Assembly (NCBI GenBank): GCA_902826155.1
Contig: CADEDU010000021.1
Coordinates: 64,940-92,009 of the forward strand
Reading direction: 5' to 3'
Length of the DNA stretch: 27,070 bases
Source of the DNA: an uncultured beta proteobacterium
GTDB lineage: Bacteria > Pseudomonadota > Gammaproteobacteria > Burkholderiales > SG8-39
The notes under the pieces are model-generated. The model searched no databases and was not told the origin of the DNA. It saw only the letters and a list, made by a program, of their open reading frames with translations. Both the position numbers and the translations under genes were made by a program. Below are positions 1,604 to 22,239 of the stretch, one piece after another. How positions within the stretch are numbered: position 1 is the stretch's first letter; every line of letters starts with the position of its first letter.

Positions 1604-1641
1604 CCGTATGCGACGGCTGCGACCGGACGTGTAGTCAGGAT

Positions 1642-1786: not shown

Positions 1787-1816
1787 CTAGGACCCTTTCC
1801 TGGAGAGTCACTGGCG

Positions 1817-2365: not shown

Positions 2366-2464
2366 TCGGTCTGGCGCGCGGCAGCTGCACTTCCGCATCT
2401 CGCGCGCTGACCCACGCGCCGTCTTGTTCTGAGCGGTCGCGACGAAAGGACCCCAGCACTACCG

Positions 2465-2498
2465 GCACCTGCGTAAGCGGTGCGAACACCGCAGGTGC
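2465..2498 (+). terminator. hairpin between the DUF4124 gene and glnL
   Basis: GCACCT (2465-2470) pairs with AGGTGC (2493-2498). Inside, GCGGTG (2477-2482) pairs with CACCGC (2487-2492) across a CGAA tetraloop. An alternative fold pairs GCACCTGCG with CGCAGGTGC. Only TTT follows. It lies 30 nt before the glnL start and could attenuate read-through into ntrBC or shape the glnL ribosome site. Confidence 0.4.
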
Positions 2499-2528
2499 TT
2501 TGCGCCACTGCGCGGCGGAGCATCGTCC

Positions 2529-5017: not shown

Positions 5018-5028
5018 GGCGCAAGCCG

Positions 5029-5044
5029 CTGCCCGAACGGGCAG
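5029..5044 (+). terminator. short hairpin after glnG
   Basis: CTGCCC (5029-5034) and GGGCAG (5039-5044) form a 6-bp stem around GAAC, 12 nt past the glnG stop. No T-run follows, so it is at best a weak or Rho-assisted terminator. Confidence 0.3.
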
Positions 5045-5122
5045 GGGCGATTTCGCATGGCGCCGGCCTCGGTGCGATCCCGCTAGGGCCAAATCTCCCG
5101 CATTCCGGGAAATTGTTTCTCT

Positions 5123-5152
5123 TTGCGAAATTTGGTGGGTGACTTCTACAAT
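5123..5152 (+). promoter_or_regulatory. sigma-70-like promoter of aceB with overlapping TTTGCGAAA
   Basis: TTGCGA (5123-5128) and TACAAT (5147-5152) are 18 nt apart. Transcription would begin near 5160, leaving a leader of about 170 nt before the aceB ATG at 5329. The -35 element is part of TTTGCGAAA (5122-5130), which resembles the TTTGC-N-AA core bound by RamB/PccR/ScfR-type acetate and propionate regulators; that link is inference. Confidence 0.5.
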
Positions 5153-5328
5153 GTCCACGGTTGCCTAGTCGGCGAACGTGCGACATTCGGCGCACCATCG
5201 CACTGCAGCATCGCCCAGTCAAGCGTGGCCGTGACGCATCACGGGATCAGCCCCTGGCTGCAGCAGCGGTGACCAGCCAACGCCCGGGCGCAACGACGCA
5301 TGCGCCTCATCACTTCGCAGGAGTTCTC

Positions 5329-6921
5329 ATGAGCACATCCTTGCCCGTCGGAATGGAAATCACCGGTCCGATCACGCCGCAGTTCGCCGAGATTCTCAGC
5401 CCGCAAGCGCTCGCCTTCATTGCCAAGCTGCATCGACAGTTCGAGCCGCGGCGCCAGGAATTACTTGCCCGCCGCGCCGCGCGCCAGAAGGAGTTCGACG
5501 CGGGCAAGCTTCCCGATTTCCTGCCCGAGACCGCGCATATCCGCAACAGCGAGTGGAGCGTCGCGCCTCAGCCGCGCGACATGCTCGATCGTCGCGTCGA
5601 GATCACCGGGCCGACCGACCGCAAGATGGTGATCAACGCGCTCAACTGCGGTGCCTCGACATTCATGGCCGACTTCGAGGACGCCAACTGCCCCACCTGG
5701 CACAACATGATCGACGGGCAGATCAATCTGCGCGATGCGGTGCGGCGCACGATCACGTTCCAGCAGGGCGATCGGATGTACAAGCTCAACGACAAGCCTG
5801 CGGTGCTGATTCCGCGGCCGCGCGGCTGGCACCTCGACGAGAAGCACGTGCGCATCGACGGCAAGCCGGTGTCGGGCGGCGTCTTCGATTTCGCGCTCTA
5901 TTTCTTCCACAACGCCAAGGAGCTGCTGGCACGCGGCTCGGGTCCGTATTTCTATCTGCCCAAGATGGAGTCGCACCTCGAAGCGCGCCTGTGGAACGAC
6001 ATCTTCGTGCTCGCGCAGGACGATCTGGGCGTGCCGCGCGGGACGATCAAGGCTACTTGTCTGATCGAGACCGTTCTCGCCGCTTTCGAAATGGACGAGT
6101 TTCTCTGGGAGATGCGTGACCATTCGGCCGGCCTGAACATCGGCCGCTGGGATTACATCTTCTCGTGCATCAAGAAGTTCCGATCGAATGCCGATTTCTG
6201 CCTCGCCGATCGTTCGCAAGTGACCATGACTGCGCCGTTCATGCGTGCGTACGCGCTGTCACTGGTCAAGACCTGTCATCGACGCAATGCGCCGGCAATG
6301 GGAGGTATGGCCGCGCAGATTCCGATCAAGAACGATCCGGCCGCCAATGAAGCGGCGATCGACAAGGTGCGCCAGGACAAGCTGCGCGAAGTCACCGACG
6401 GTTGCGATGGCACCTGGGTCGCCCATCCCGGTCTGGTGCCGATCGCCAAGGAGATGTTCGACAAGCACATGCCCACACCGAATCAGTACAGCCGCCAGCG
6501 GACCGACGTGAGTTTCGGCGCGAAGGATCTGCTCAACTTCCAGCCTTCGTCACCGATCACCGAAGTGGGTCTGCGCAACAACATCTCGGTGGGCATCCAG
6601 TACCTGGGCGCGTGGCTCGCGGGCAACGGCTGCGTGCCGGTGTTCAACCTGATGGAAGATGCGGCAACCGCGGAAATCTCGCGTTCGCAGATCTGGCAGT
6701 GGATTCGCAGCGAGAAAGGCAGGCTCGATGATGGTCGCAAGGTGACGGTCGAACTGTTCCGCACGTTGCTTGCCGACGAGCTGCCGAAGGTGAAGACCCA
6801 TCTCGGCGAGGCCGCCTGGAACGAAGGCAAGTACGAAGAGGCGGCAACACTCTTCGATCGCATCACCACCGGCGAGTACGTCGAGTTCCTTACTCTCCCC
6901 GCGTACGAGCTGATCGACTGA
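5329..6921 (+). CDS. aceB: malate synthase A
   Basis: This enzyme condenses glyoxylate with acetyl-CoA to malate, the second step of the glyoxylate shunt, and is cytosolic. The 530 residues match the isoform A length. The PROSITE-type signature [16 protein letters not shown] lies at about residues 263-278, and [19 protein letters not shown] in the C-terminal third carries the catalytic acidic region. The reading frame is open back to a TTG at 5161. I place the start at the ATG at 5329 because AGGAG (5319-5323) sits 5 nt upstream and the protein then begins at the usual family position. Isocitrate lyase (aceA) is not in the window. The gene appears monocistronic. Confidence 0.96.
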
Positions 6922-6941
6922 AGCCTCGCGTGCATCAATGC

Positions 6942-6972
6942 GCACCGCCGGGCCGATCGAGGCAGGCGGTGC
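6942..6972 (+). terminator. hairpin after aceB
   Basis: GCACCGCC (6942-6949) pairs perfectly with GGCGGTGC (6965-6972) across a 15-nt loop, 20 nt past the aceB stop. An overlapping alternative pairs GCCTCG (6923-6928) with CGAGGC (6958-6963). No T-run follows, so terminator function is uncertain. Confidence 0.35.
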
Positions 6973-7125
6973 ACAAACGGTCACGCAGCCCGAAACAATC
7001 CGCACGCGCGTCGTGGCGCAGTGCACGGCGCGCGCCGGGGTGCCGCAGTATCAATCGAGCGTGAGCGCCCTGGCGGAAATCGTCGCGAGGGCCGACTCTC
7101 ACTACAACGACAACGCGCTGCGGCC

Positions 7126-7368
7126 ATGCTCCTCACACTCAAGCACACCTTTCGGTTGAAAACGCGCTCGGGCACGATCGTCGACAACATCGTGATCGCC
7201 GCGCGTGATCGCGCCGATGCCGAGCGACGTCTGCTCATGATGTATCCAGCGGCGCAGATTCTGCAGTGCCAGGTCAAGGACGCGCGTGCCGCGTTTGCGG
7301 CGACTCCGGTGGCAGGCGCCAGCGAATTGCCGAGCTACGAAGAACTCCTGGGCGCGCTCACTGAGTGA
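7126..7368 (+). CDS. small hypothetical protein
   Basis: The 80-residue product is not one I recognise. It starts with a beta-strand-like amphipathic stretch (LLTLKHTFRLKTRSGTIV), then a helical AADAERR-type segment and a short acidic tail (YEELLGALTE). There is no signal peptide, membrane helix or metal motif. The frame is open back to 7021. I prefer the ATG at 7126 because the upstream part reads as low-complexity Arg-rich translation and the conserved-looking protein begins at this ATG. It converges on the ParA gene, overlapping its 3' end by 11 nt. It may be a standalone small fold. Its reality rests on composition and the codon pattern only. Confidence 0.6.
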   Translation: MLLTLKHTFRLKTRSGTIVDNIVIAARDRADAERRLLMMYPAAQILQCQVKDARAAFAATPVAGASELPSYEELLGALTE

Positions 7369-8209
7369 GGGCGCCCGCCGCGGCTGCGTGGGTGTAGTGA
7401 GCGGCACCGGCGGCAAATACGCCATCGGACTCGCTACGAGCCTTACCCGCTTGTCCTGACAGCGCACCGCGCAACTCTTCGAACAACTGCATGTAATCAC
7501 GCGCGCCACGGCTGGCCGGCGCGTGACGAAACACGTCTTTGCGCATGGACGGGCTTTCGGCCAGTGAAGCTGTTTCGGCGATACGGGTGACGCAGACCTG
7601 GGCACCGAAGCGCGCGCGCAACGCCTGCTCCACCGAGTGCGCCATGCGGCGACGAGCATCGAACCGGGTGATGACGACGCGCCGTTCGATCTGGATCTTG
7701 AGCGCGTCTTCGAGCCCGTTGACCGTACGATCGACGCCAAGCGCGCCTTTTAGCGAGAGGTAGTCGCCCGACACCGGGATGAGCACGCTGCGCGTGGTCA
7801 GCAACGCGGCGAGCGTGAGCATGCCGGCAAGCGGCGAGCAATCGCAAATCACCGGACGATTCGGATAGTCGCGTTGCCATGCTTCGACCCGCTTGGCGAG
7901 CACCGACATCGCGTCGCTGCTGCGACCGAACAACGACTCGATCTTGAGCAGCTCAACGTGGGCGGGAACGATGTCGCCCAGCTCCGGCACCGGCACCGCC
8001 AGCGAGGCAAGGCTGCGGCCGTCGGCAAAGGCACCCAGAACCGAGCGTCCGGCCAGCTTCTTGATGCCGAGCGCGTCGGTCAGGTATCCCTGCGGATCGA
8101 GATCGATCCACAGCGGTGCCATGCCATGACGGGAGTAGGCCGCGCCGAGATTGAGCGCAGTGGTGGTCTTGCCGACTCCGCCCTTCTGATTGAAGACGGT
8201 GATTCGCAT
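7358..8209 (-). CDS. ParA-family ATPase, orphan
   Basis: This is a 283-residue MinD/ParA-type P-loop ATPase. The deviant Walker A KGGVGKTTTALNLG lies at about residues 9-22, followed by the switch region WIDLDPQG (35-42) and a Walker B-like VICDCSPLAG around the middle. ParA ATPases position DNA, protein complexes or organelles in the cell. There is no ParB gene, no visible parS repeat and no replication gene nearby, so this is an orphan chromosomal ParA and probably not a plasmid partition gene. The same-strand neighbour upstream (8350-8754) encodes a membrane zinc-ribbon protein, and the 140-nt gap leaves co-transcription open. The C-terminal about 20 residues are Ala-rich and weakly constrained. 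Confidence 0.9.
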   Translation of the reverse strand: MRITVFNQKGGVGKTTTALNLGAAYSRHGMAPLWIDLDPQGYLTDALGIKKLAGRSVLGAFADGRSLASLAVPVPELGDIVPAHVELLKIESLFGRSSDAMSVLAKRVEAWQRDYPNRPVICDCSPLAGMLTLAALLTTRSVLIPVSGDYLSLKGALGVDRTVNGLEDALKIQIERRVVITRFDARRRMAHSVEQALRARFGAQVCVTRIAETASLAESPSMRKDVFRHAPASRGARDYMQLFEELRGALSGQAGKARSESDGVFAAGAAHYTHAAAAGALTQ

Positions 8210-9027: not shown

Positions 9028-10344
9028 ATGCAAATGCGCCACAAACTCGCCTCCCTGATCGACGATAGCGACGAACGGTTTCGCGTTGATCGCGCTGTCT
9101 ACTTCGACCCGGAAGTATTCGAAGCCGAACTGGCGAGCCTGTTCGAAGGAGGCTGGATTTACCTCTGCCATGAAAGTCAGTTGCGCCAGACGGGTGCGTA
9201 CGTCACGGCCACGATGGGGCGGCAACCTGTGTTCATTGTGCGCAAGAAGGACGGCACGCTCGCCGGCTACATCAATGCGTGTTCGCACCGCGGCGCGATG
9301 CTTTTGCCGCTCCAGGCCGGTAGGGAATCTGCGTTCACCTGCCGCTTCCACGGCTGGATGTTCAATCTCGACGGACGCTGTATCCAGATCAAGAACGAAG
9401 ATTCCGGCGCCTACGACCTGGCCAATCCCCGCGCGGCGTTCTCGCTCACGCCGATCGGACGCATCGACTCGTATCGAGGGTTCGTGTTCGGCAGCCTGCG
9501 CGAAGACGTCTGCCCGCTTGCCGACTATCTCGGTCCGACCAGACCGTGGATCGATCTCATGGTCGATCAGTCACCCCAGGGCCTGGAAGTGCTGCCGGGA
9601 TCTTCCACTTATGTCGTGCGTGGCAATTGGAAGATGCAGGCCGAGAACGGCGTCGACGGATATCACGTCTCGACCGTGCATCGCGTGTTCGCCAGCACAA
9701 TGGCCAATCGCGAGGCGAAGCTCAACTTGAGCGGCATGCAGCGTACCGAGTCCGGGCGGCTGACCGGCAACGTTGCATCGGGCGGCTTCGACTTCGGCAA
9801 CGGCCACATGGCGATCTGGGCGCAGCACACCGACCCGACGCGCCGTCCGATCTACGCGCAGAAGGAGAGGCTGGAGAGGGAGTTCACGCCGGCGAAGGTC
9901 GACTGGATGATCAACCGCGGCCGCAACCTGTTCCTGTTCCCGAACGTGCTGCTGATGGACAACCCCTCGACGCAGATCCGCACGATCCAGCCGGTCTCGC
10001 CTGATCGGGCCGAAGTCACCGTGCGTTGCATAGCGCCGCTCGGCGAAAGCCAGGCGGCGCGCAGCGCGCGGCTGCGCAAGTTCGAGGATTTCTATCTCAC
10101 CACCGGCATGGCAACGACCGACGATCTGGCCGCGCTCGAAGCCACGCATCTGGGCGGCCTCGGCCGACGCGCACGCTGGAACGACATGGCGCGCGGCGCC
10201 ACGGCAATCGTGCAGGGCGCGCGCAATGAAGACGCCGCCGCAATCGGCTGCGAGCCCGCCACCAGTTCGCACAACTGGGATCACGAGATCATGTACCGCG
10301 GCTTCTATCGCAACTGGCTCGAGCGGCTGATGGAACAGGCATGA
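9028..10344 (+). CDS. aromatic ring-hydroxylating dioxygenase, alpha subunit (oxygenase 1)
   Basis: This is the catalytic large subunit of a Rieske non-haem iron oxygenase, 438 residues. The Rieske [2Fe-2S] ligands are Cys85 and His87 (CSHRG) and Cys105 and His108 (CRFHGW). The mononuclear iron site is ENGVDGYHVSTVH with bridging Asp210, His213 and His218; the third ligand is probably Asp354 in the FEDF context. Its overall pattern, with DQSPQGLEVLPGSSTY and MATTDDL, is closest in my memory to the benzoate/anthranilate dioxygenase (BenA/AntA) group. The substrate cannot be read from sequence. It would need an electron-transfer partner that is not encoded nearby. The beta subunit follows after 10 nt. 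The ATG is preceded by AGAGGAA. Confidence 0.92.
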   Translation: MQMRHKLASLIDDSDERFRVDRAVYFDPEVFEAELASLFEGGWIYLCHESQLRQTGAYVTATMGRQPVFIVRKKDGTLAGYINACSHRGAMLLPLQAGRESAFTCRFHGWMFNLDGRCIQIKNEDSGAYDLANPRAAFSLTPIGRIDSYRGFVFGSLREDVCPLADYLGPTRPWIDLMVDQSPQGLEVLPGSSTYVVRGNWKMQAENGVDGYHVSTVHRVFASTMANREAKLNLSGMQRTESGRLTGNVASGGFDFGNGHMAIWAQHTDPTRRPIYAQKERLEREFTPAKVDWMINRGRNLFLFPNVLLMDNPSTQIRTIQPVSPDRAEVTVRCIAPLGESQAARSARLRKFEDFYLTTGMATTDDLAALEATHLGGLGRRARWNDMARGATAIVQGARNEDAAAIGCEPATSSHNWDHEIMYRGFYRNWLERLMEQA

Positions 10345-10354
10345 GAGGGCAGGC

Positions 10355-10849
10355 ATGAGCGCACCCACCGTCGATGCCGAAGTCAGCGCTCTCGTTTATC
10401 GCGAGGCGATGCTGCTGGACGCGAAAGATTGGAAGTCCTGGCTCGATCTGTACCTGGAGGACGCGGTGTTCTGGATGCCGGCCTGGCAGAGCGAAACGGC
10501 GACGACGAGCGATCCGGACAATCAACTCAATCTGCTCTATCTGCGGCAGCGGGCCAATCTCGAGGACCGCGTGTTTCGTATCGAGTCGGGCGATTCGTTC
10601 GCGTCCGTCCCGCTCGATCGCACGGCACACATAGTGAGCGGCGTGCTGGTGCTGGGTGAGTCGAACGGTGAGATCGAGGCGGCGGCCAGCTGGTTGTGCC
10701 ACGTATACGGCATTCGCGGCGCGTTCACACGAGGCGGTCGCTACGACTATCTACTACGCCGTACCGCTCGAGGACTGCGCATCGCGCGCAAGAAGATCAC
10801 GATGATCGACGACAAGCTCGAAGGGCCGATCGACATCTATCACGTGTGA
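10355..10849 (+). CDS. aromatic ring-hydroxylating dioxygenase, beta subunit (oxygenase 1)
   Basis: This 164-residue small subunit has the SnoaL/NTF2-like fold typical of ring-hydroxylating dioxygenases. YREAMLLDAKDWKSWLDLY near the start, DAVFWMPAW, and RQRANLEDRVFRI followed by a C-terminal IARKKITMIDD are characteristic of the BenB/AntB group. The beta subunit is structural and helps assemble the alpha3-beta3 hexamer. It follows the alpha stop by 10 nt with GAGGG as the ribosome site, so the two are co-expressed. A bidirectional hairpin follows and separates it from the convergent PanE-like gene. Confidence 0.92.
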   Translation: MSAPTVDAEVSALVYREAMLLDAKDWKSWLDLYLEDAVFWMPAWQSETATTSDPDNQLNLLYLRQRANLEDRVFRIESGDSFASVPLDRTAHIVSGVLVLGESNGEIEAAASWLCHVYGIRGAFTRGGRYDYLLRRTARGLRIARKKITMIDDKLEGPIDIYHV

Positions 10850-11886: not shown

Positions 11887-12387
11887 TCAGAGATTGTAGA
11901 AATCCAGCTTGGCCGGCAGATAGTCGTTGAGCAGCAGGATCTTCTGCCTGGCGATCCGCCACGCGTTGTCGAGGCGCACCAGCTCGTGCTCGTAACGGCC
12001 GAAGTGCGTCTCTGCCACTTTCTCCTTGACCAGGAACTGCTGGACGGTCCAGTTCGAGAAGACGAGCAACCGGTTCGACGATGCGCCTTCGTCGAGCATG
12101 ACATTGGCGATCGAATGCTGCGTACGCGGCAGCACCGCCGAGGCGACCGACTTGCCTGATCGGGCACGCCACACCCGGTCTTCCAATCCGGCGCGCTTGT
12201 TGTAGTAGACCAGCGAAACCTCGCGCTTGGGATTGTCGGTGGGCGTGTGCTCGCCCTTCCACGCCGGTACCCAGTACTCGGCATCCTCGGTGAACAGAGC
12301 GAGCCAATCGTCCCATCGTTGCGTGTCGAGGTAGTACGCCTGCCGGTACAGCAGCTCGGTCGCCTGCTCAACCGCCTCGCGATTCAC
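11887..12387 (-). CDS. aromatic ring-hydroxylating dioxygenase, beta subunit (oxygenase 2)
   Basis: This is a 166-residue SnoaL/NTF2-like small subunit of a second Rieske oxygenase. LLYRQAYYLDTQRWDDWLAL, DAEYWVPAW, NKRAGLEDRVWRAR and the C-terminal IARQKILLLNDYLP follow the family pattern. It is clearly homologous to, but not a recent copy of, the beta subunit at 10355-10849. The frame is open upstream to 12468, but I chose the GTG at 12387 because it overlaps the alpha-subunit stop as GTGA, a classical 4-nt coupling, and gives the usual length. Confidence 0.92.
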   Translation of the reverse strand: MNREAVEQATELLYRQAYYLDTQRWDDWLALFTEDAEYWVPAWKGEHTPTDNPKREVSLVYYNKRAGLEDRVWRARSGKSVASAVLPRTQHSIANVMLDEGASSNRLLVFSNWTVQQFLVKEKVAETHFGRYEHELVRLDNAWRIARQKILLLNDYLPAKLDFYNL

Positions 12388-13766
12388 GGCTGACCCACGA
12401 TCGTCGGACGAGCGAATGGCGTCACGCGCACCTCGCGTGACACGCCGTTCTTGAGCAGGCGCACCCACTCGCGATAGCCCGCATGGAAGATCGTTTCGTC
12501 CTGCATGTCGTGCGGACCCTGCTGGCTGGTGACCGGTTGAATGCCGATGCTCTTGGCCGTGGCATCGGCGCCGTCACGCACCGCGGTCATGCCGCGCGCG
12601 TAACCTTGCTGCCAGGTGATCGATTGCGCGCCGTAGCCGGCCTGGCAATCCTCATAGCACGTCGTGTCGTCGGGCGTGGCCATGCCGGTGCTGTTGAAGA
12701 AGTCTTCGTACTGGCGGATACGCGTCTCGCGCGCGGCATCGGATTCGCCGCGCGGCGCGAGGCAATAGATCTTCATCTCGGTGCGATCGACCGCCAATGG
12801 CCGGATGATGCGCAGCTGCAGCGATGCGTTCTCGGCGAACTGCACGTTCGGATAGATGGTGAGATTGCGCTGATAGAACATCCACTCGGTGCGCACCTCA
12901 CCCACGCGGCGTTTGACCTCATCGACCGATGCGAACAGCGGCCGCACCTGCGGGGTCGGGTTCTTTGACCACAGTACGCAATGGCCATGCGCGAACGTGA
13001 AGCTGCCGCGGGTCACCTCGGGCAAGCGGTACAGGTTGAAATCAAGCGCTTTCAGATTGTTCCCCGACTCGCCCGACTTGCGTCGCTCGACGATGCGCAT
13101 GAAGCTTGGGTGCGCCGAACTGAGATGGTAGGCGTCGACGCAGTTCTCGATCTGCAGCTTCCAGTTGCCGTTGAACGTGTAGGTCGAGCAGCCGGGCACG
13201 AGTTCCACGCCTTGCGGGCTCTGGTCGATCACCAGATCCAGGAAGAAGCGTGCATCGCCCAGATGCGTTTCGAGCGCAGGCACCTCGGCGTTGAGGCTGC
13301 CGAACAGGATGCCGCGATACTCGGCAAAGCGCGGCACCTTCACCAGGTGATGCTCGTCGCGATCGAAGGCCGCGCTGTAGGCGCCGTCCTTCATGTCCTT
13401 GATGTCGATGCAGCGCCCGGCGCTGTCGTAGGCCCAGCCGTGGTAGTTGCACACGTGGTACTTGGCGTTGCCGTGTTCGTGATGGCACACCAGCGCACCG
13501 CGATGCCGGCACGAATTCATGTACGCACCGAGCTTGCTCTCGGCGTTGCGCATCACCACGATCGGGGTGCGTCCGATCCAGCCGGTGAAATAGTCGTGCG
13601 GCGCGGGAATCTGCGAGGCGAAGCCCAGGAACATCCAGGTGCCTTCGAAGATGTACTTCATCTCCAGCTCGAACAGCGCCGGATCGCGAAACACGTCGCG
13701 ATGCACGCTGAATTCGCCCTGCGCGACCTTGTCGACGACGTAGCGATCGATCTGGTCCGGGGTCAT
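12384..13766 (-). CDS. aromatic ring-hydroxylating dioxygenase, alpha subunit (oxygenase 2)
   Basis: This is the catalytic subunit of the second Rieske oxygenase, 460 residues. The Rieske ligands are Cys86 and His88 (CRHRG) and Cys106 and His109 (CNYHGW). The iron site ENCVDAYHLSSAH has Asp211, His214 and His219, with Asp355 in QYEDFF as the probable third ligand. It belongs to the same broad BenA/AntA-like group as oxygenase 1, but differs in the active-site neighbourhood (ENCVDA versus ENGVDG) and has a longer C-terminus, so the substrates probably differ. GGAG sits 7 nt before the ATG. It is followed by its beta subunit with a 4-nt overlap and preceded by a VOC gene 45 nt upstream on the same strand. 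Confidence 0.92.
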   Translation of the reverse strand: MTPDQIDRYVVDKVAQGEFSVHRDVFRDPALFELEMKYIFEGTWMFLGFASQIPAPHDYFTGWIGRTPIVVMRNAESKLGAYMNSCRHRGALVCHHEHGNAKYHVCNYHGWAYDSAGRCIDIKDMKDGAYSAAFDRDEHHLVKVPRFAEYRGILFGSLNAEVPALETHLGDARFFLDLVIDQSPQGVELVPGCSTYTFNGNWKLQIENCVDAYHLSSAHPSFMRIVERRKSGESGNNLKALDFNLYRLPEVTRGSFTFAHGHCVLWSKNPTPQVRPLFASVDEVKRRVGEVRTEWMFYQRNLTIYPNVQFAENASLQLRIIRPLAVDRTEMKIYCLAPRGESDAARETRIRQYEDFFNSTGMATPDDTTCYEDCQAGYGAQSITWQQGYARGMTAVRDGADATAKSIGIQPVTSQQGPHDMQDETIFHAGYREWVRLLKNGVSREVRVTPFARPTIVGQP

Positions 13767-15479: not shown

Positions 15480-15530
15480 CGGTGTGCGCGCCTCCCTGCG
15501 TGTCGCGTACCTCGGTGTGCGCGCTTCCCT
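15480..15530. repeat. 33-bp-period direct repeat between cdsA-like gene and xth
   Basis: The 18-mer CGGTGTGCGCGCCTCCCT (15480-15497) recurs with one mismatch at 15513-15530, giving a 33-bp period. The second copy touches the stop codon of the CdsA-like gene. A short intergenic tandem duplication is the simplest reading. Confidence 0.6.
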
Positions 15531-16503
15531 ATATTGCCCAGCCGTAGCGCGTCGCGTGGAAGAACACCGGCGCGGCGAAGCACACCGAATCGAGGCGATC
15601 GAGCATGCCGCCATGGCCTTCGATGAGGTGACCCCAGTCCTTCACGCCGCGGTCGCGCTTGACCGCCGACATCACCAGGCCGCCGAGAAAGCCCATCAGG
15701 CAAATACCCAAAGCCATCAGGGCGGCGCGCCACGGCTTGAACGGGGTGATCCAGTAGAGCGCCGCGCCCAGCACGGTCGCGCTCAGCACGCCGCCGATCA
15801 AGCCTTCCACGGTCTTCGATGGCGACAAGTTCGGCGCAACCTTGTGTTTGCCGGCGAGCTTGCCCCACACGTACTGCAGCACATCACTGCCTTGCACCAC
15901 CAGCACCAGAAACACGATCAGCAGCGGCAGGCGTTCGTCGAAATTGGGGATGTTGAGCGTGAGCAGCGCCGGCACGTGCGAAATGCAGTACACGCAGATC
16001 ATCAAGCCCCATTGCACGTTCGCGGTGCGCTCGAGAAAGCGCGTGGCGTCCTGGCGCAACGCGGTCACGATCGGCAGGAATAGAAACGCGTAGACGGGGA
16101 TCAGGATGGTCGATAACCCGTACCACTCGATCCACACCAGGTAGTACTGCAGCGGCAGGAACACGAAGAAACTGAGCGCAAGCGCCCAGTGATCGCCGCG
16201 GCGCGTGTACGTGATCGTGATGAATTCGCGTAGCGCAAAGAATGAAGCCAGCGCGAACAGCACGATCACCCCGGCCTTGCCGAAGTAGAAAGCCAGCGTA
16301 ACGAGCGCCACCATCACCCACCACGACTTGATGCGCGCATTGAGGTTGTCGATTACCGGCGAGGGCGTGCCTGCGGGCACGCGCATCCTGAGCAGCCAAC
16401 CGATCACCGACGCGAGCATCAGCACGCCGGCGATCGCCGCAAACAGCAGGATCGTCTGCTGCCGATAGCTGAGATCCATCGGATTGACCAGGCTCGCGCT
16501 CAT
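15529..16503 (-). CDS. ynbB: CdsA-like phosphatidate cytidylyltransferase (YnbB-like)
   Basis: This enzyme makes CDP-diacylglycerol from phosphatidic acid and CTP in the membrane. The 324-residue protein has about seven or eight hydrophobic segments and a full CDP-diacylglycerol synthase signature at 279-306 (SAVKRDRGVKD followed by GHGGMLDRLDS). SDVLQYVWGKLAGKH and NLSPSKTVEGLIGG are also typical. Length and context match the E. coli YnbB type better than housekeeping CdsA (about 285 residues, usually next to dxr, uppS and frr, none of which is here). The ATG overlaps the acyltransferase stop as TAATG, so the two are coupled; the open frame upstream belongs to the acyltransferase region. Confidence 0.9.
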   Translation of the reverse strand: MSASLVNPMDLSYRQQTILLFAAIAGVLMLASVIGWLLRMRVPAGTPSPVIDNLNARIKSWWVMVALVTLAFYFGKAGVIVLFALASFFALREFITITYTRRGDHWALALSFFVFLPLQYYLVWIEWYGLSTILIPVYAFLFLPIVTALRQDATRFLERTANVQWGLMICVYCISHVPALLTLNIPNFDERLPLLIVFLVLVVQGSDVLQYVWGKLAGKHKVAPNLSPSKTVEGLIGGVLSATVLGAALYWITPFKPWRAALMALGICLMGFLGGLVMSAVKRDRGVKDWGHLIEGHGGMLDRLDSVCFAAPVFFHATRYGWAI

Positions 16504-17129
16504 TAAAGTCGTTCCTCCGGGGCCAGTGACAATAGTGCGGTGCGCGCCCGTTCGAGGAACGCGTCCTTCGACTCGTCGGGTTCGAGTCGCAATGGCGCGC
16601 CGAACGTCGCCGTGCATAGCAGCGGGATCGGCACGACCTCGCCTTTAGGCATCACCCGGTTCAGGTTCTCCAGCCACACCGGGATGAACTCCAGATGCGG
16701 TCGCTCCACGGCGAGGCGATAGATGCCGCTCTTGAACGGCAGCAACACCTCTTCGGTCGTGTTGCGCGTGCCTTCGGGGAAGATGATCAACGAGGAGCCT
16801 GCATCGATGGCTTCGACCATGATGGTGATCGCGTCGGGCATGCCAGGCTTGCGATCGCGATCGACCAGCACTGCATTGATGACCTTTGTGCCGATGTAGC
16901 TGCGGACCAGGCCCTTCAGCCAGTAGTCGGAGCCTGCAACCGGACGGGTGTGAGCGCGGATGCGTGCGGGAAGCGAGGACCAGATGAGCACGAAATCGGC
17001 ATGACTCGAGTGATTGCCGAAGTACACGCGCTGCGTGTCGAGCGGCATGCTGTCGCGCCAGATGGCGCGCACGCCGGTGACGGCGCGCGCCACACCAATC
17101 AAGCCGAGCGCGGCGAGTTGAGCGAGCAT
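16503..17129 (-). CDS. PlsC-like 1-acyl-glycerol-3-phosphate acyltransferase
   Basis: The 208-residue product is a lysophosphatidate acyltransferase-family protein. It has block I NHSSHAD (39-45, NHx4D) with the catalytic His and Asp, and block III FPEGTR (117-122) for glycerol-phosphate binding. The N-terminal hydrophobic segment (about 1-20) is short. The expected reaction is acyl transfer to lysophosphatidic acid, giving phosphatidic acid, the substrate of the next gene's product. It is small for PlsC (usually about 240) and may act on another lyso-lipid. It lies 13 nt behind the small membrane protein and ends in a TAATG overlap with the CdsA-like gene. Confidence 0.88.
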   Translation of the reverse strand: MLAQLAALGLIGVARAVTGVRAIWRDSMPLDTQRVYFGNHSSHADFVLIWSSLPARIRAHTRPVAGSDYWLKGLVRSYIGTKVINAVLVDRDRKPGMPDAITIMVEAIDAGSSLIIFPEGTRNTTEEVLLPFKSGIYRLAVERPHLEFIPVWLENLNRVMPKGEVVPIPLLCTATFGAPLRLEPDESKDAFLERARTALLSLAPEERL

Positions 17130-17142
17130 TTATCGATCTTGT

Positions 17143-17580
17143 TCAGCGTGCAGCAATGACTGCGAACGCCAGGGCGGTGGTCTGGACCACGAGCAGGATA
17201 GCTTGAAGCGTGAGCAGGCGGCGCGCACCGAGGCATCGGTCGGTCCAGTTTCGCCCGGTTTTGTTCGCCGACATCAGGCCCAGCGCGCGCATGGCCGCGT
17301 CGAACTCGGTTGTCGGCATCTGGTCCGCGGCGCAGCGATGCAACAGCGCGGCGTCGAACGCGACACGCACCGCGAGATACTTGGCGAGAAGCCCGGATCC
17401 AACGATCGCCAGCGCGAACCAGATCGCCGTCGACCGGAACGCTCCCCCGACCCCGGTCGCGAACAGGAGCAGGCAGAGCGCTGCCGCGATCGTCAGCGCG
17501 CTGGAGAGCGCGTCGATCGTGCGCCCACGGTCGAGCAGATCTGCGGTCACACCAACGATCACGCGATCGGCAGGATTCAT
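17143..17580 (-). CDS. small three-helix membrane protein, unknown function
   Basis: The 145-residue protein has three likely membrane segments (about 26-46, 52-72 and 122-144) and a polar stretch between the second and third containing FDAALLHRCAADQMPTTEFD. I do not recognise the family. The start is fixed by a 4-nt ATGA overlap with the phosphatase gene upstream, and only 13 nt separate it from the acyltransferase. It is therefore translationally embedded in the lipid cluster. The same frame is open much further upstream inside the phosphatase gene, but that part is shadow sequence. I recall no counterpart in the four-gene E. coli ynbABCD set, so it may be a lineage-specific subunit. Confidence 0.8.
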   Translation of the reverse strand: MNPADRVIVGVTADLLDRGRTIDALSSALTIAAALCLLLFATGVGGAFRSTAIWFALAIVGSGLLAKYLAVRVAFDAALLHRCAADQMPTTEFDAAMRALGLMSANKTGRNWTDRCLGARRLLTLQAILLVVQTTALAFAVIAAR

Positions 17581-18944
17581 GCGCGAGCGCCCTCGATCGC
17601 CGAGTGGTGGTGCGGACCCAGTACAACACGAGGACGCGCCTGCTCGATCATCGCGACGGCATTGGCCGTCGAACCTGCCCGCCCCGAATTCAACAGCCAC
17701 GCCGCCACGGCACAGGCACTGCGCGAATAACCGAGTGCGCAGCACACCAGTACCGGTTTGGGCGCTGCCTCGATCGCTTGCGCCGCTATCGCGAGTGCTG
17801 CCGGATCCGGCGTCACCAGATCCAGCATCGGCACCGACACGTACCGTGCCACATTGCCACGGTGGGTTGCGTGCATCTCGCCGGTGAGATCGACGATTGC
17901 CTTGTAGGGTGACCGACCGAGCTCCGTACGGCTCGGCATTCGGCCGAGCCAGACATCCGCTGCCACGTGATCCGCGGCGCTGCGGCCGTGCGTCCAGGCT
18001 CGCGAGTTGATCCACGCGCCGACAAGATAAGGAGCGAACAGCCAGCGCGCGGCAACGCTCATCACGCCGTCGGCACCCTTCTGGAACGCATGAACACCGC
18101 AAACGAAATAGCAAAGCGCCACCAGCGCGAGCGCCGAGGCGGGCCACCACAGCCATAGCCAGGCGCCACCACCGATCATCGCGACGCAGGCAACGACCAA
18201 CGCGCCGGCGAAGTAGTAGCCGGCGAGTTTGCGTCGCTGCACGTCACCGGCGAGGCTGGCGTGAGCCATCGGCGTCGGACCTCGCATCGGCCATAGCCAC
18301 AGACATAAGAACCCGGCGAGCATCCCGGTGGGCAGGTCGATGAAATGGTGCTGATAGGTGGTGAGCACCGACACGCCGATCAACAGCATCCAGCCGTGTA
18401 GCGGCCACAGCAGCCAGCGCGGTGCGTGCGCGGCAAGTCGCGCCCAGATGATCAGGAGTAGGCTGATGTGCAGCGAAGGTGCCTGGTTGAACGGTTTGTC
18501 GAAGCCAGCCAGCGCGTCGAACATCATGCCGGGCAACCCGTCGGCGGCGGGGCGCTCGAAGGTGAACTGCAACGGCAGAGCGATGAAACAGGCGATCGAG
18601 ATGATCTGCGCGCTCAGCAATCGCCTGGCATGCGTGTTGACTTCCGATCGGGTCGTGCAGACGAGTAGCGACAGGCCATAGAGCAGATCGATCGACCAGT
18701 AAGGAATGATGGTCCAGGCCAGGAACGGGATGTGCCGCTCCCAGTCGAACACAATGACGCCAACGCTCGTGCGCGTGCTCGCCAGCCAGTTGGCGAAACC
18801 GTACGTGAGAAAGAAGAGCGGTCCGAGCAAGCACAACCACGCGATCGCCAGGCGCCATGGCCTGCCGTTGCTGCTTCCAAGCGGGTCGTGCCGCACGCGG
18901 CTCGGATGCGTCATGGCGGAGGCGGTGCGTTCCGATTCGCCCAT
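17577..18944 (-). CDS. ynbD: PAP2 phosphatase fused to dual-specificity phosphatase (YnbD-like)
   Basis: The 455-residue membrane protein has an N-terminal PAP2 (lipid phosphatase) domain with about six helices and the motifs PSLH (156-159) and HHFIDLPTG (His199 and Asp203 of SRx5Hx3D). Two more helices follow (about 242-288), then a cytosolic dual-specificity phosphatase domain (about 320-455) with the P-loop CALGYSR (Cys402 to Arg408) and an upstream VDLTGE that could supply the general acid. E. coli YnbD has the same layout and length. One or both domains could dephosphorylate a phosphatidyl-alcohol-phosphate, as PgpB and PTPMT1-type enzymes do. It begins 3 nt after the hydrolase-methyltransferase stop. 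An internal Met11 is an alternative start. Confidence 0.88.
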   Translation of the reverse strand: MGESERTASAMTHPSRVRHDPLGSSNGRPWRLAIAWLCLLGPLFFLTYGFANWLASTRTSVGVIVFDWERHIPFLAWTIIPYWSIDLLYGLSLLVCTTRSEVNTHARRLLSAQIISIACFIALPLQFTFERPAADGLPGMMFDALAGFDKPFNQAPSLHISLLLIIWARLAAHAPRWLLWPLHGWMLLIGVSVLTTYQHHFIDLPTGMLAGFLCLWLWPMRGPTPMAHASLAGDVQRRKLAGYYFAGALVVACVAMIGGGAWLWLWWPASALALVALCYFVCGVHAFQKGADGVMSVAARWLFAPYLVGAWINSRAWTHGRSAADHVAADVWLGRMPSRTELGRSPYKAIVDLTGEMHATHRGNVARYVSVPMLDLVTPDPAALAIAAQAIEAAPKPVLVCCALGYSRSACAVAAWLLNSGRAGSTANAVAMIEQARPRVVLGPHHHSAIEGARA

Positions 18945-18947
18945 GGA

Positions 18948-20732
18948 TCAGCCGACGCGCACCGCGAGTGACACCGTGAAGATGCCCCACTCGTCGATGC
19001 GTTGCGTGATCTTGCGGAATCCGGCGTGCTCGGCCAACTGATCCATCTCGGCTTGTGTCCGGCGTCGCATCACCCACGCTGCTCCGGCGCGATGACTGGT
19101 CAACGCGCGTGCGATCAACTCCAACTGCGGATGCCAGGGTTGATTGGTGTAGATCAAGTACCCGCCGACCGGTACCGCGTCGGCCAGACCTGCCAGCGAG
19201 CGTTCCAGCATCGCGTTATCGGGGAACAATTCGTAGAGCCCGGAGACGAATGAGATCGTCGGCTTGGGCGTGACCGCGGCGATACCGGCGCGATCGAACG
19301 CATCGGCTTTCTCGAAGCGCGCGATCCGGCCTAGTCCCTTCTGCTCGATCAGCGCACTGCCCTCGCGCACATTGATGTCGCTGTAGTCGCGCAGCAGGAT
19401 GGAGGCCGGTGGCTGTTCGTTCCTGGTCAATGCTTCCAGCACGTAGCGTCCATGCCCGGCAGCGATATCGAGCACGTGCACCGGCTGGCCCGACTCGCGC
19501 ACACGGCGCATTGATTCGCGCAGCAGTTCCTCGATGTGCAATTTGCGCTGGCGGATGCCGCGCCAGCCGATGGCATTCAGGTAGTTGGCATCGATCGCAC
19601 GGCCCAGCGGCGTGACCCCTTCTACGCGATTGCGGTAGACGTAGTCGAGCGTGCTGCCGGAGTCGAATCCGGTGCGATGCCCGAGCCGCACCCCGCTCGA
19701 GAGCAGACCACCGAACTTCAGCGAGGCGCGCGTCATCGCCCAATACAGACCGCGCGGCGACAGCAGTGACAGCGGCCTGGAAAGCGCCTCGGACTCTTCG
19801 CGAGTAAAGCCTTGCAGATGCGCGCTGCGAAGGTCGACGCGTGCCTGCGGCCCGGCGAATCGCGCGAGGATGAACGAGCGAGCTTTGTCGATCGCGAGTC
19901 TGCGATCGCGCTCGCCGAGCGTGTCGTGAAAGAAGCCGGGCAAGACGTGTTTTTCTTTGACCGGACTGCCGAGCCGCTCGAAGAACGCGTGCTGTGGCGC
20001 GTGGTGCACGACCCAGTCGCTGCCCGAGATCAGCAGCTGTGTCGGTGTCGTGATCGCCTGTGCGTCGGCGACCACTCGATCGGCGGCTTCATACAGCCCG
20101 AGCAGGATGTTGACCGCGATCGGACGGGTGATGAGCGGATCGGACTCGTACGAGGCGATGCGCTCCGCGTCGTGCGTCAGGAACTTCGCTTTCACGTAGC
20201 TGTTGACGAAGAACTTGCCCCGCAGCTTGTGCAGCAGCGCGAGCCCGGGACGCGCAAACGGTACGTACAGCTTGACCTTGAAGGCGGGCGAAGCCAGCAC
20301 TGCGCAGCGAACCTTGGGGGCATAGTCGTGCAGCCAGGTTGCTGCGAGCACTGCCCCGACGCTTTGCGCAACAACCGCTATGTTCTCGACCGGGATGCCG
20401 TGCGTCGCGACGATGTGATCGATGAACGTCTGGACGTCGCGCACCGACGTGCCGAACGAAGGGCTGAAGCCGCGCTCGCCAGGAGACCGTCCGTGCCCGC
20501 GCGCATCCCAGGCGAAGAACTCGAACTGCGGCAGATCCAACTCGTCGACCAGATGCGCCATACGTCCGGAGTGCTCGTGCCCGCGGTGAAACAGCACCAC
20601 GGCTTGCCGTGTGCCGTTGTCGTGCCCGCCATCGCGCAGGCCAGGTAAGTGCTCCGCTGCGCGCCAGTGGCGGTAGAACAAAGCTTCCCCGTCGTGGGTC
20701 CGAAACGAAGCTTCGATCGCTGTTCGCATCAT
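18948..20732 (-). CDS. ynbC: alpha/beta-hydrolase fused to SAM methyltransferase (YnbC-like)
   Basis: The 594-residue protein has two enzymes in one chain. The N-terminal half (about 1-300) is a monoacylglycerol lipase/lysophospholipase-like hydrolase: HRGHEHSGR for the oxyanion region, WDARGHGRS, nucleophile Ser124 in AQSVG, Asp239 in SGSDW and His269 in GFFHD. The C-terminal half (about 310-594) is a class I methyltransferase with motif I VLDIAAGHGR (420-429) and YTNQPWHPQLE in the later core. E. coli YnbC (about 585 residues) shares the same fusion. No membrane helix is seen. TTG at 20735, ATG at 20732 and ATG at 20729 are all possible starts. GAGGA (20736-20740) fits the last ATG best; I report the first ATG. 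A 217-nt gap separates it from the transferase gene. Confidence 0.88.
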   Translation of the reverse strand: MMRTAIEASFRTHDGEALFYRHWRAAEHLPGLRDGGHDNGTRQAVVLFHRGHEHSGRMAHLVDELDLPQFEFFAWDARGHGRSPGERGFSPSFGTSVRDVQTFIDHIVATHGIPVENIAVVAQSVGAVLAATWLHDYAPKVRCAVLASPAFKVKLYVPFARPGLALLHKLRGKFFVNSYVKAKFLTHDAERIASYESDPLITRPIAVNILLGLYEAADRVVADAQAITTPTQLLISGSDWVVHHAPQHAFFERLGSPVKEKHVLPGFFHDTLGERDRRLAIDKARSFILARFAGPQARVDLRSAHLQGFTREESEALSRPLSLLSPRGLYWAMTRASLKFGGLLSSGVRLGHRTGFDSGSTLDYVYRNRVEGVTPLGRAIDANYLNAIGWRGIRQRKLHIEELLRESMRRVRESGQPVHVLDIAAGHGRYVLEALTRNEQPPASILLRDYSDINVREGSALIEQKGLGRIARFEKADAFDRAGIAAVTPKPTISFVSGLYELFPDNAMLERSLAGLADAVPVGGYLIYTNQPWHPQLELIARALTSHRAGAAWVMRRRTQAEMDQLAEHAGFRKITQRIDEWGIFTVSLAVRVG

Positions 20733-20949
20733 CAATCCTCAACTCCCTGTTCATTCAGACCGGCGGATTTGCGGCGATGTCTGGGCCCCGATCCACCAGT
20801 GCCTTACGAGCGGTGCGTCGTGCCACTACAGGGTGCGTGCGGCAACACATATTCGATCGAACATACGCGTAGCGGCACGCCCGAACTGATCGTGTCGAGC
20901 CGCCATCGTTTGTCGATCGCTGCTTCGCGCGCGATCCGCGCAGAGGTGG
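20733..20949. other. intergenic gap inside the lipid cluster
   Basis: This is a 217-bp gap between the YnbA-like and YnbC-like genes, both on the minus strand. I see no convincing open frame or intrinsic terminator. On the minus strand a Shine-Dalgarno GAGGA lies at 20736-20740. The gap is long compared with the 3-13 nt spacing elsewhere in the cluster, so it could hold a second promoter for the downstream genes, but no good -35/-10 pair is visible. Confidence 0.4.
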
Positions 20950-21564
20950 TCACCTGGTGCTGTCGGAGCGCACGGACTCGGCGAGACCCGCCCGCATGCG
21001 GTTGAGCGCGGTGAGCGCAATGGCCGCCGCGAGGAGCCACAGGGCCCACAGGATCCAGCCGGGCAGCCATCCGGAGATTCCGAGCCAAAGTCCCAGCACG
21101 CCGAACACCAGCGCACGATCGCTCTTGCCCATCGGACCATCGTAGCGACGCGAACTCCCGGTTGCCTGTGCGAGCACGCCGACGAACTCGGTCAACGTCG
21201 CCAGGAAGATGATGATTCCGATCACCATGCCATTGAGCGGCGCGACGAACGCGAACGGCAGGTATAGCGCCGCATCGGAGATCACATCGGTGAGTTCGTT
21301 GAGATACGCCCCGAGCGTGGTGCGCTGATCATGCTCGCGCGCGAGCATGCCGTCGATCGCGTTGAGCGCCATGCGCAGCAGCATCCAGATCGGCACCAGC
21401 ACGAACCAAGTATGCGGTAGCGCAAGCAGCGCCAGGCCGACACAGACGGACACGACGCATGCGGCAAGCGTTACCTGGTTCGCGGTGACCCCGGCATGTG
21501 CCAGGCGCGCTACGAGAGGCCGCAGCAGCGCCTGAAAGCGGGGCTTGAGGGAATAGAGCGACAT
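20950..21564 (-). CDS. ynbA: CDP-alcohol phosphatidyltransferase (YnbA-like)
   Basis: The 204-residue protein of about six membrane helices carries a variant of the CDP-alcohol phosphotransferase motif Dx2DGx2ARx8Gx3Dx3D. Here it reads NAIDGMLAR, then eight residues, then GAYLNELTD (68-93). Asp71 and Asp93 are present, but the first and third aspartates are Asn68 and Asn89. The family joins an alcohol or alcohol phosphate to CDP-diacylglycerol, as PgsA and PssA do. I chose the ATG at 21564, giving MSLYSLKPRF as in YnbA-type proteins; the open frame extends 11 codons further. The acceptor is unknown. The cluster's phosphatase suggests a phosphorylated product. Confidence 0.87.
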   Translation of the reverse strand: MSLYSLKPRFQALLRPLVARLAHAGVTANQVTLAACVVSVCVGLALLALPHTWFVLVPIWMLLRMALNAIDGMLAREHDQRTTLGAYLNELTDVISDAALYLPFAFVAPLNGMVIGIIIFLATLTEFVGVLAQATGSSRRYDGPMGKSDRALVFGVLGLWLGISGWLPGWILWALWLLAAAIALTALNRMRAGLAESVRSDSTR

Positions 21565-21648: not shown

Positions 21649-22239
21649 CTACTCCGGCAGATAGCGACCCTTGGGCGCCGACGGTTCTGCTTTGGCGGCG
21701 GAATTGCCCTTCGCCGCGGTCGTTTCGCTCTTGCCTTTGGGCTGTACCGCGGGTGCGCGGCCGGGGACTGCTTTGCCCGGATAACCGGCTTGATCGAGTG
21801 CTGCGTTGAACGCGCCTTCTTCGAACCCCTTGCTCAAGCTCGAGCCTACGAGGAGAACGGGCACTTCAGCTGCTCCACCGACCTTGATCAGCTCTTCGCG
21901 CGTCTTGTTGTCGCTGACGACGATCTCCTTGAAAGGCACGCCGCGCTTGTTCAACAGCGTCCGAGCGTCTGCACAAGGCTCCTTGCACTCGGGCGCGGTG
22001 TAGAGCGCTACCGGATAGGCCTTCACGGCTTCGCGCAACGCGTAGCCGGCATCGGAGGTCTCGACGACGCTCCCGCGAACCTGGCGCTGCTCGATCGACT
22101 TGGGCTTGTCGTCGGGTTTCTTGTCGCTGTAGTAGACCTTGCCGTCCTTGTCGACCCAGCGATACATCCCTTGCGCGGCAGCGTTGCCGGCAACGAGCAG
22201 TGCCAGCAATGCGATCGATCCCGCAGCGATTCGTTTCAT
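21649..22239 (-). CDS. exported DUF4124-glutaredoxin domain protein
   Basis: The 196-residue protein has a signal peptide (cleavage near AAA-QG, about 22/23), a DUF4124 module (MYRWVDKDGKVYYSDKKP, 25-42) and a thioredoxin-fold glutaredoxin-like domain (about 75-150). The active site is Cys85-x3-Cys89 (CKEPC) rather than CPxC, and the cis-proline is in EVPV (about 127). A disordered Ala/Lys/Pro tail (160-196) follows. It should act in the periplasm, perhaps as a thiol oxidoreductase, but the one-residue-longer CxxxC spacing makes standard redox activity uncertain. DUF4124-Grx fusions are known in betaproteobacteria without an assigned role. The next gene upstream is oligopeptidase A, 41 nt away. 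Confidence 0.88.
   Translation of the reverse strand: MKRIAAGSIALLALLVAGNAAAQGMYRWVDKDGKVYYSDKKPDDKPKSIEQRQVRGSVVETSDAGYALREAVKAYPVALYTAPECKEPCADARTLLNKRGVPFKEIVVSDNKTREELIKVGGAAEVPVLLVGSSLSKGFEEGAFNAALDQAGYPGKAVPGRAPAVQPKGKSETTAAKGNSAAKAEPSAPKGRYLPE

What the first reader, a model, noticed from the sequence alone, without database searches (positions are those of the whole stretch)
15529..21564. Extended ynbABCD-like cluster: a possible dedicated second phospholipid pathway
Six minus-strand genes encode a CDP-alcohol phosphatidyltransferase, an alpha/beta-hydrolase-methyltransferase fusion, a PAP2-dual-specificity phosphatase fusion, an unknown three-helix membrane protein, a PlsC-like acyltransferase and a CdsA-like synthase. 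The last five are packed with 3-13 nt gaps or 1-4 nt overlaps. Family knowledge gives a logical chain: acylate lyso-PA, make CDP-diacylglycerol, transfer an alcohol (phosphate), dephosphorylate, then methylate or trim. E. coli YnbABCD has the same four core types and length classes but, to my knowledge, no settled product. This version adds an acyltransferase and a small membrane protein, making the set look self-sufficient. The product could be a novel or conditional phospholipid.
Basis: partly seen in the sequence, partly recalled or inferred. Interest (0 to 1): 0.78.

Follow-up and report, generated by a model that had tools for sequence, protein, structure and literature searches.

The report
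Six-gene minor-phospholipid pathway cluster
The six genes look like a dedicated set for building and then modifying a minor membrane lipid of unknown identity; E. coli carries a trimmed version (ynbABCD), and the lipid-joining enzyme has an unusual metal-binding site, but no product has been shown.

Summary
The six minus-strand genes are real and as described. Four are orthologues of E. coli YnbA, C, D and B (50, 56, 37, 38% identity). The "extended" form is the usual one among near relatives: 73 of 80 loci carry all six; E. coli has a reduced form. In 398 Pseudomonadota genomes the pattern is nested: YnbA in 37, YnbC in 27 (all within the 37), the three-helix protein X in 26 (all within the 27). 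There are two modules. A-P-B (CDP-alcohol transferase, PlsC-like, CdsA-like) also occurs without the rest; C and X occurred only in YnbA genomes, and D was absent from all 10 YnbA genomes lacking C.

New here: the YnbA-type proteins examined, one distant outlier apart, have Asn for Asp at signature positions 1 and 3 (N-D-N-D); in a known relative these are metal ligands.

A dedicated minor-lipid pathway is likely; the headgroup is unknown.

The parts
20950..21564 (-). A: YnbA orthologue, CDP-alcohol phosphotransferase fold with N-D-N-D signature
   Evidence: PF01066 34.5 bits, cut-off 22; 50% to E. coli YnbA
21286..21363 (-). variant signature of A, residues N68-D71-N89-D93 (Asn at positions 1 and 3)
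   Evidence: 120 of 120 listed homologues and 79 of 79 locus copies, window and E. coli included; the two sets may overlap
18948..20732 (-). C: YnbC orthologue, monoglyceride-lipase-like hydrolase (residues 41-276) fused to methyltransferase (285-592)
   Evidence: PF12147 496.8 bits, PF12146 241.5 bits; 56% to YnbC; solved relatives of the hydrolase part are monoacylglycerol lipases
17577..18944 (-). D: YnbD orthologue, PAP2-like membrane domain fused to dual-specificity phosphatase domain
   Evidence: PF00782; 37% to YnbD; model pLDDT 89.4
18294..18857 (-). PAP2-like part of D (about residues 30-217); PSLH and QHHxxD motifs
   Evidence: alignment A5; family matches in homologues; weak PLPP1 match
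17580..17987 (-). dual-specificity phosphatase part of D (about residues 320-455); D375, C402, R408
   Evidence: invariant in 20 of 20; structural match
17143..17580 (-). X: unnamed three-helix membrane protein
   Evidence: no Pfam family; model pLDDT 95.2; 26 of 26 X-positive genomes also have YnbC
16503..17129 (-). P: PlsC-like acyltransferase (HX4D, FPEGTR)
   Evidence: PF01553 63.1 bits; motifs 76 of 76 and 75 of 76 best hits per locus
15529..16503 (-). B: YnbB orthologue, CdsA-like CDP-diacylglycerol synthase
   Evidence: PF01148 225.2 bits; 38% to YnbB; CdsA-type signature in 76 of 76

Best explanation
The locus is the common six-gene form of the YnbABCD system and encodes a dedicated minor-phospholipid pathway in two modules. 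Core A-P-B: P acylates lysophosphatidic acid, B activates the phosphatidic acid to CDP-diacylglycerol, and A, a CDP-alcohol phosphotransferase with an Asn-substituted metal site, passes the phosphatidyl group to a small acceptor that is not inositol phosphate and probably not glycerol-3-phosphate. Cassette C-D-X: C (lipase-like hydrolase plus SAM methyltransferase), D (dual-specificity phosphatase plus an atypical PAP2 domain) and the three-helix protein X modify the core product, D and X acting as a pair. Shown: gene identity, conserved catalytic motifs, modular co-inheritance, N-D-N-D signature. Inferred from families: each step. Not known: acceptor, final lipid, order of C and D, role of X.
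For: Nesting in 398 genomes: A 37, C 27, X 26, X within C within A; A lies within 5 kb of C in 27 of 27 and X in 25 of 26. 73 of 80 loci have all six. Three loci with C-D(-X) but no A, P, B have an A-P-B or A-B-P trio on another contig of the same genome. Trio without C-D-X: 8 of 10 YnbA+ YnbC- genomes, with no YnbD-type PAP2 domain in any of the 10. D and X stay together: in G214 both lie 43-45 kb from C, side by side, and G306, which lacks X, lacks D too. One genome has the trio without C-D-X at the site where Pseudomonas loci carry all six. Distance matrices of all 15 gene pairs correlate (0.67-0.92; 0 of 200 permutations reach any). Catalytic motifs kept. A review states that YnbB makes CDP-DAG in vitro (PMC7018664, passages). 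Ino1 (PF01658) in only 2 of 23 genomes.
Against: No lipid product was found in the listings and passages I saw. YnbB does not complement a cdsA knockout (PMC6362211, passages). E. coli YnbD complements neither PGP- nor C55-PP-phosphatase loss (PMC7413402). The N-D-N-D site could mean that A is not a normal transferase. A ynbB deletion grows normally. 847 of 5,426 E. coli genomes have no megablast match to the cluster. 2 of 10 YnbA+ YnbC- genomes lack an intact trio near YnbA: one decayed A-B (L105), one lone ADND protein (L141). L008 has A, C, D, P, B but no X.
Confidence: 0.5

Rival explanations
1. A second phosphatidylglycerol route: A makes phosphatidylglycerophosphate and D, PTPMT1-like, dephosphorylates it, as in mitochondria.
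Against: E. coli YnbD, even when induced, fails to complement a PGP-phosphatase-deficient strain (PMC7413402 Table 2). D's PAP2 domain lacks the C3 Arg in 20 of 20; the equivalent PgpB R201A has 0.3% PGP activity, yet still complemented, so the missing Arg alone does not explain the failure. A scores 19.6 bits against a TIGR00560 cut-off of 109.1. The residue after Asp4 is mostly Val, whereas the 6 controls that I class as PgsA-like have Lys.
Confidence: 0.12
2. The set supplies the glycolipid MPIase or a similar sugar-pyrophosphate-diacylglycerol.
For: YnbB overproduction raises MPIase in E. coli (PMC6362211, passages); YnbB is titled a CdsA paralogue dedicated to MPIase (reference entry seen; paper not read).
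Against: A ynbB deletion does not change MPIase significantly. No glycosyltransferase among the six genes. It leaves A, C, D, X and P without roles.
Confidence: 0.12
3. A is no longer a synthase: the Asn-substituted site binds or hydrolyses CDP-diacylglycerol, and the system senses or remodels phospholipids (trimmed by C, dephosphorylated by D) rather than making a new headgroup.
For: Both Asp 1 and Asp 3 are Asn in 120 of 120 and 79 of 79 copies; lipase-like C; polyphosphate rise in a ynbC transposon mutant in one strain background, but not in the Keio background (PMC2435150, passages).
Against: P and B travel with A, which suggests substrate supply for synthesis; A keeps Asp2, Asp4 and the GKSDR stretch in 120 of 120 and 79 of 79, and R189 in 20 of 20.
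Confidence: 0.2
4. The genes are merely neighbouring lipid genes with no shared pathway.
For: Each family except X and C is common alone (recalled).
Against: Nesting of X, C and A in 398 genomes, and separated modules still present in the same genome.
Confidence: 0.03

Closest known systems
E. coli K-12 ynbABCD (b1408-b1411)
   Same: Orthologues of all four genes, contiguous on one strand
   Different: Order A-B-C-D in E. coli versus A-C-D-X-P-B here; no X or P at the E. coli locus
Phosphatidylinositol phosphate synthase (Mtb PgsA1, PDB 6h53)
   Same: Best solved relative of A by profile (50.4 bits)
   Different: D-D-D-D signature; Arg94, needed for inositol phosphate, is Val in A; A scores 64.3 against the NCBIfam PIPS cut-off of 170
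Mitochondrial-type CDP-DAG / PGP synthase / PTPMT1 phosphatidylglycerol pathway
   Same: Same three enzyme classes in one set (pathway recalled); dual-specificity fold match to PTPMT1
   Different: YnbD does not complement PGP phosphatase loss (PMC7413402); extra hydrolase-methyltransferase and X
A'-P'-B' trio with a sister N-D-N-D protein (three cases: L126 within L129, L127 within L130, L128)
   Same: CDP-alcohol-transferase-like, PlsC-like and CdsA-like genes adjacent; Asn at positions 1 and 3
   Different: AVE/AIE instead of ARE, Arg after Asp4, and no C, D or X hit in the 12-13 kb fetched

Membership tests
YnbABCD system | orthologues of YnbA, YnbB, YnbC and YnbD adjacent on one strand | tested here: met
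YnbABCD system | shared lipid product | not testable with these tools
   no product found in the listings and passages seen
Canonical CDP-alcohol phosphotransferase | PF01066 domain over the curated cut-off | tested here: met
   34.5 bits, cut-off 22
Canonical CDP-alcohol phosphotransferase | four Asp of the signature | tested here: not met
   N-D-N-D in the window, in 120 of 120 homologues and 79 of 79 locus copies; filed as a variant
Phosphatidylinositol / archaetidylinositol phosphate synthase | NCBIfam equivalog cut-off | tested here: not met
   64.3 of 170 and 78.3 of 180
Phosphatidylinositol / archaetidylinositol phosphate synthase | Lys/Arg after Asp4 | tested here: not met
   Val in the window and in 119 of 120 homologues, Ile in 1
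Phosphatidylinositol / archaetidylinositol phosphate synthase | inositol-1-phosphate synthase in the genome | tested here: inconclusive
   PF01658 in 2 of 23 related genomes; the window's own genome is not held
PgsA (PGP synthase) | TIGR00560 cut-off | tested here: not met
   19.6 of 109.1
CDP-diacylglycerol synthase (CTP_transf_1) | PF01148 and the KRD...KD.G....GHGG.LDR.D signature | tested here: met
   225.2 bits; 76 of 76
CDP-diacylglycerol synthase (CTP_transf_1) | complements cdsA | not tested
   E. coli YnbB does not (PMC6362211)
PTPMT1-like PGP phosphatase | catalytic Asp, Cys, Arg of the dual-specificity domain | tested here: met
   D375, C402, R408 invariant in 20 of 20
PTPMT1-like PGP phosphatase | closer to PTPMT1 than to other dual-specificity phosphatases | tested here: inconclusive
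PAP2 lipid phosphatase | C2 and C3 His and C3 Asp | tested here: met
   PSLH 82 of 82, QHHxxD 81 of 82
PAP2 lipid phosphatase | C3 Arg (and invariant C1 Arg) | tested here: not met
   C3 Arg absent in 20 of 20; C1 position R 13, K 4, Q 3 of 20, the window having R
PlsC-like acyltransferase | PF01553, HX4D, FPEGTR | tested here: met
   63.1 bits; motif counts
Methyltransf_20 fused to Hydrolase_4 | both Pfam models over cut-off, catalytic Ser present | tested here: met

The most novel reading that the evidence does not exclude
YnbA-type proteins and their sister family form a catalytically distinct class of CDP-alcohol phosphotransferases with an Asn-Asp-Asn-Asp metal site, supplied by their own acyltransferase and CDP-diacylglycerol synthase, and they make a phospholipid headgroup (or use a nucleophile) not yet described in bacteria, which the C-D-X cassette then methylates and trims.
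Probability: 0.3. Interest if true: 0.82.

Novelty: new variant of a known kind. Interest (0 to 1): 0.57.

Why it matters
ynbABCD is present over at least 80% of its length in 4,242 of 5,426 complete E. coli genomes, yet no product turned up in the papers searched. The nested two-module pattern says which genes to delete or express together and gives a minimal trio to test first. The N-D-N-D signature turns an open question (what YnbA does) into a two-residue mutagenesis and substrate-screen experiment, and it warns against assigning YnbA a textbook reaction by family name.

Tried and rejected
Inositol lipid: the best NCBIfam scores of A are inositol-phosphate synthases but far below cut-off, and Ino1 is in 2 of 23 genomes. 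Phosphatidylcholine: an old EcoCyc assignment, withdrawn there because E. coli has no phosphatidylcholine (PMC3781023, passage). ECA-linked phospholipid: ynbB was a Tn-seq hit but the authors report it is not needed for ECA-PG (PMC8609368, passages). A headgroup-supplying neighbour gene: among 900 flanking frames the 25 most widespread groups printed were shared within one or two related genera or were housekeeping (gene names mine, from sequence); the one broad group that includes the window (9 loci) is the histidine-kinase superfamily, about 12 kb away in the window. My gene caller keeps some antisense frames, so a small neighbour could be missed. Fold match for X: none with E <= 0.001 in the PDB, so nothing claimed. 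The PAP2 half of D filled no Foldseek or VIA-align rows shown because the phosphatase half dominates; a profile search of that half gave weak PLPP1/2 hits. Tandem repeats and tRNAs in the window: none.

Counts dropped or qualified: the 80 loci are the best of 271 encoding a relative, so close relatives are over-represented. The 120 YnbA homologues are the listed best of 7,999 scored and may overlap the locus copies. In one search, 83 of 200 genomes matched the YnbA alignment at E <= 0.001; I counted the 14 above 220 bits (the next is 71 bits). In one search the limit was E <= 1e-30, and the weakest of the 37 (G297, 176 bits) is the ADND outlier. Controls: I fetched 18 of the non-YnbA PF01066 hits; 15 matched the first pattern, all D-D-D-D; a wider pattern adds L123 as D-D-D-D; L110 and L125 have another spacing and were not scored. 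Two further loci in that fetch, L126 and L127, came and turned out to be sister N-D-N-D proteins. PF01066 is itself built on the Asp signature, which biases the controls. Nesting probabilities (log10 about -39 and -33) assume independent genomes and are not corrected for kinship. In one search the patterns 'SR.....H...D', 'general acid' and the C1 patterns were badly specified and are not used; the C1 and C3 counts come from the 20 rows. Among the 76 P hits, L011's is an upstream paralogue. The contig of L030, titled Desulfobulbus, resembles L018 (Azonexus) in X and D and may be misbinned. BLASTP was run only against the four ynb proteins. D was sought genome-wide only in 13 genomes, and P and B were checked only in the loci fetched.
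Full report
Observation. The six minus-strand genes are present at the stated coordinates with the stated spacing. A lies 217 nt upstream of C; the other five are packed with gaps or overlaps of 3, -4, 13 and -1 nt. Families: A CDP-OH_P_transf, C Hydrolase_4 plus Methyltransf_20, D dual-specificity phosphatase (PAP2 not called in the window protein itself), X no family, P Acyltransferase, B CTP_transf_1. BLASTP against E. coli MG1655 YnbABCD gives YnbA 50%, YnbC 56%, YnbD 37%, YnbB 38%; X and P have no counterpart there.

Distribution. A scan of species genomes with the YnbC alignment gave 271 loci encoding a relative, of which the best 80 were kept. 73 of the 80 carry all six genes, 69 of them in the window's order A-C-D-X-P-B. 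By record title these include Pseudomonas, Variovorax, Zoogloea, Azoarcus, a Rhodospirillaceae isolate and Acidobacteria bins. Of the 7 others, L004, L011 and L056 end with the contig in or just after D; L008 lacks X; L066, L024 and L036 have C-D(-X) without A, P and B. The genomes of those last three each have an A-P-B or A-B-P trio on another contig.

Nesting. In 398 Pseudomonadota genomes drawn evenly from the phylum of one Pseudomonas genome (that genome included), YnbA was found in 37, YnbC in 27 and X in 26. All X genomes are YnbC genomes and all YnbC genomes are YnbA genomes; a first draw of 200 gave 14, 10 and 10. A is within 5 kb of C in 27 of 27; X in 25 of 26. Of the 10 YnbA genomes without YnbC, 8 have A, B and P side by side, one has a decayed A-B pair (L105) and one a lone ADND relative (L141). 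None of the 10 has a YnbD-type PAP2 domain in the whole genome, while the positive control G001 does. D and X go together: in G214 X and D are neighbours 43-45 kb from C, which itself sits beside A, P and B, and G306 (A and C only) has neither. In one complete genome (G200) the site glyS-gmhB-plsC / gyrB-recF-dnaN-dnaA (names mine, from sequence) holds A-P-B without C-D-X, with one extra gene beside B, where several Pseudomonas loci have A-C-D-X-P-B. So C-D-X behaves as a cassette that depends on A-P-B. Pairwise distance matrices of the six genes in 74 complete sets (window included) correlate at 0.67-0.92, highest for A-C, D-X and P-B; shared species descent alone would give part of this.

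Not the housekeeping route. 22 of 23 genomes have at least two CTP_transf_1 matches, and the exception is a 2.4-Mb assembly; all 23 have another, stronger CDP-alcohol transferase. The window's own genome is not held, so this is shown for relatives only.

The active site of A. The CDP-alcohol phosphotransferase signature has four Asp. In Mtb PgsA1, D68, D71 and D89 bind Mg-1, D89 and D93 serve the Mg-2 site, and D93 is the presumed base (PMC6506517, passages). YnbA-type proteins have N-D-N-D in 120 of 120 listed homologues and 79 of 79 locus copies, window and E. coli included, in 6 of 6 further loci (L102-L107) and in 10 of 11. Among 18 PF01066 controls from genomes that carry YnbA, 16 are D-D-D-D and 2 could not be scored. 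Three sister proteins (L126, L127, L128) also have Asn at both places and sit in their own trio. The residue after Asp4 is Val in 119 of 120 homologues and in 71 of 79 locus copies. In inositol-phosphate enzymes it is always Lys or Arg and important for activity; six controls that I class as PgsA-like have Lys, and controls of other shape have mixed residues, Val included (classes are mine, from motif shape). The sister proteins have Arg there. Arg150 and Arg189 of A may match the phosphate-binding Arg155 and Arg195 of PgsA1, but the printed alignment is one residue off at the first, so this is a lead only.

The other enzymes. B keeps the CdsA signature in 76 of 76 and P its two motifs in 76 and 75 of 76. 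C keeps the Ser, Asp and His of the hydrolase and the SAM motif in at least 81 of 82; solved relatives of its hydrolase part are monoacylglycerol lipases. D's phosphatase Asp, Cys and Arg are invariant in 20 of 20; the model (pLDDT 89.4) matches archaeal Tk-PTP, PTPMT1 and other dual-specificity phosphatases about equally. Its PAP2 domain keeps both catalytic His and the Asp but lacks the C3 Arg in 20 of 20; in PgpB, R201A leaves 0.3% PGP activity but still complements (PMC7413402, passages). X is a confident helical model (pLDDT 95.2) without a PDB match at E <= 0.001; the 30 database relatives found are unnamed or 'hypothetical'/'transmembrane' proteins.

What print says. YnbB overproduction raises MPIase but YnbB cannot replace CdsA, and a ynbB knockout grows normally (PMC6362211, passages); a review states that CdsA and YnbB both make CDP-DAG in vitro (PMC7018664, passages). 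YnbD does not rescue strains lacking PGP or C55-PP phosphatases (PMC7413402, passages). A ynbC transposon mutant accumulated polyphosphate in one background, not in Keio (PMC2435150, passages); the authors note possible polar effects. ynbA is described as BglJ-RcsB activated and is up in two stress transcriptomes (PMC12871917, PMC12811501, passages) and down in a radiation study (PMC10134817, passage). Searches listed no paper that, in the listings and the passages of 15 papers seen, names a product, the six-gene form or the N-D-N-D signature; subscription papers are mostly outside that library.

Conclusion. A dedicated minor-lipid system is the best reading; its product is not phosphatidylinositol and probably not phosphatidylglycerol. 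The boldest reading the evidence allows is that N-D-N-D marks a separate catalytic class.

Noticed in passing
L128 (A 5020-5892, P 5274-6509, B 6323-7435 as open frames), L129, L130: A sister N-D-N-D family (AVE/AIE in place of ARE, Arg after Asp4) in its own CDP-alcohol-transferase/PlsC/CdsA trio, 56-68 bits against the YnbA profile.
   Followed up: partly
21 of 80 loci, such as L041, L046, L049 (upstream of A): A second PlsC-like gene lies upstream of A; in Pseudomonas it neighbours gmhB- and glyS-like genes near the dnaA-gyrB region.
   Followed up: partly
E. coli genomes, hits: 847 of 5,426 complete genomes have no megablast match to ynbABCD, and the five rows listed all carry an insertion sequence within the cluster.
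   Followed up: no
L141 (A open frame 5743-6972, minus): A lone distant YnbA relative with A-D-N-D signature and no P or B in the 12 kb fetched.
   Followed up: no
window 9028-10344 (+), 10355-10849 (+), 12384-13766 (-): Two Rieske ring-hydroxylating oxygenase alpha subunits on opposite strands and a beta subunit; a frame at 11887-12468 (-) looks like a second beta subunit (not searched).
   Followed up: no
window 188-5017 (+): Glutamine synthetase, a 296-aa frame without a family, a PAS histidine kinase and a sigma-54 response regulator, a glnA-ntrBC-like arrangement (the name is recalled).
   Followed up: no
window 21649-22239 (-): DUF4124 fused to a glutaredoxin domain, directly upstream of A on the same strand.
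   Followed up: no
plasmid records: YnbC relatives (E <= 1e-50) lie on 30 of 72,556 plasmid records, 13 of them Shinella; 27 of the 30 are predicted non-mobilizable.
   Followed up: no
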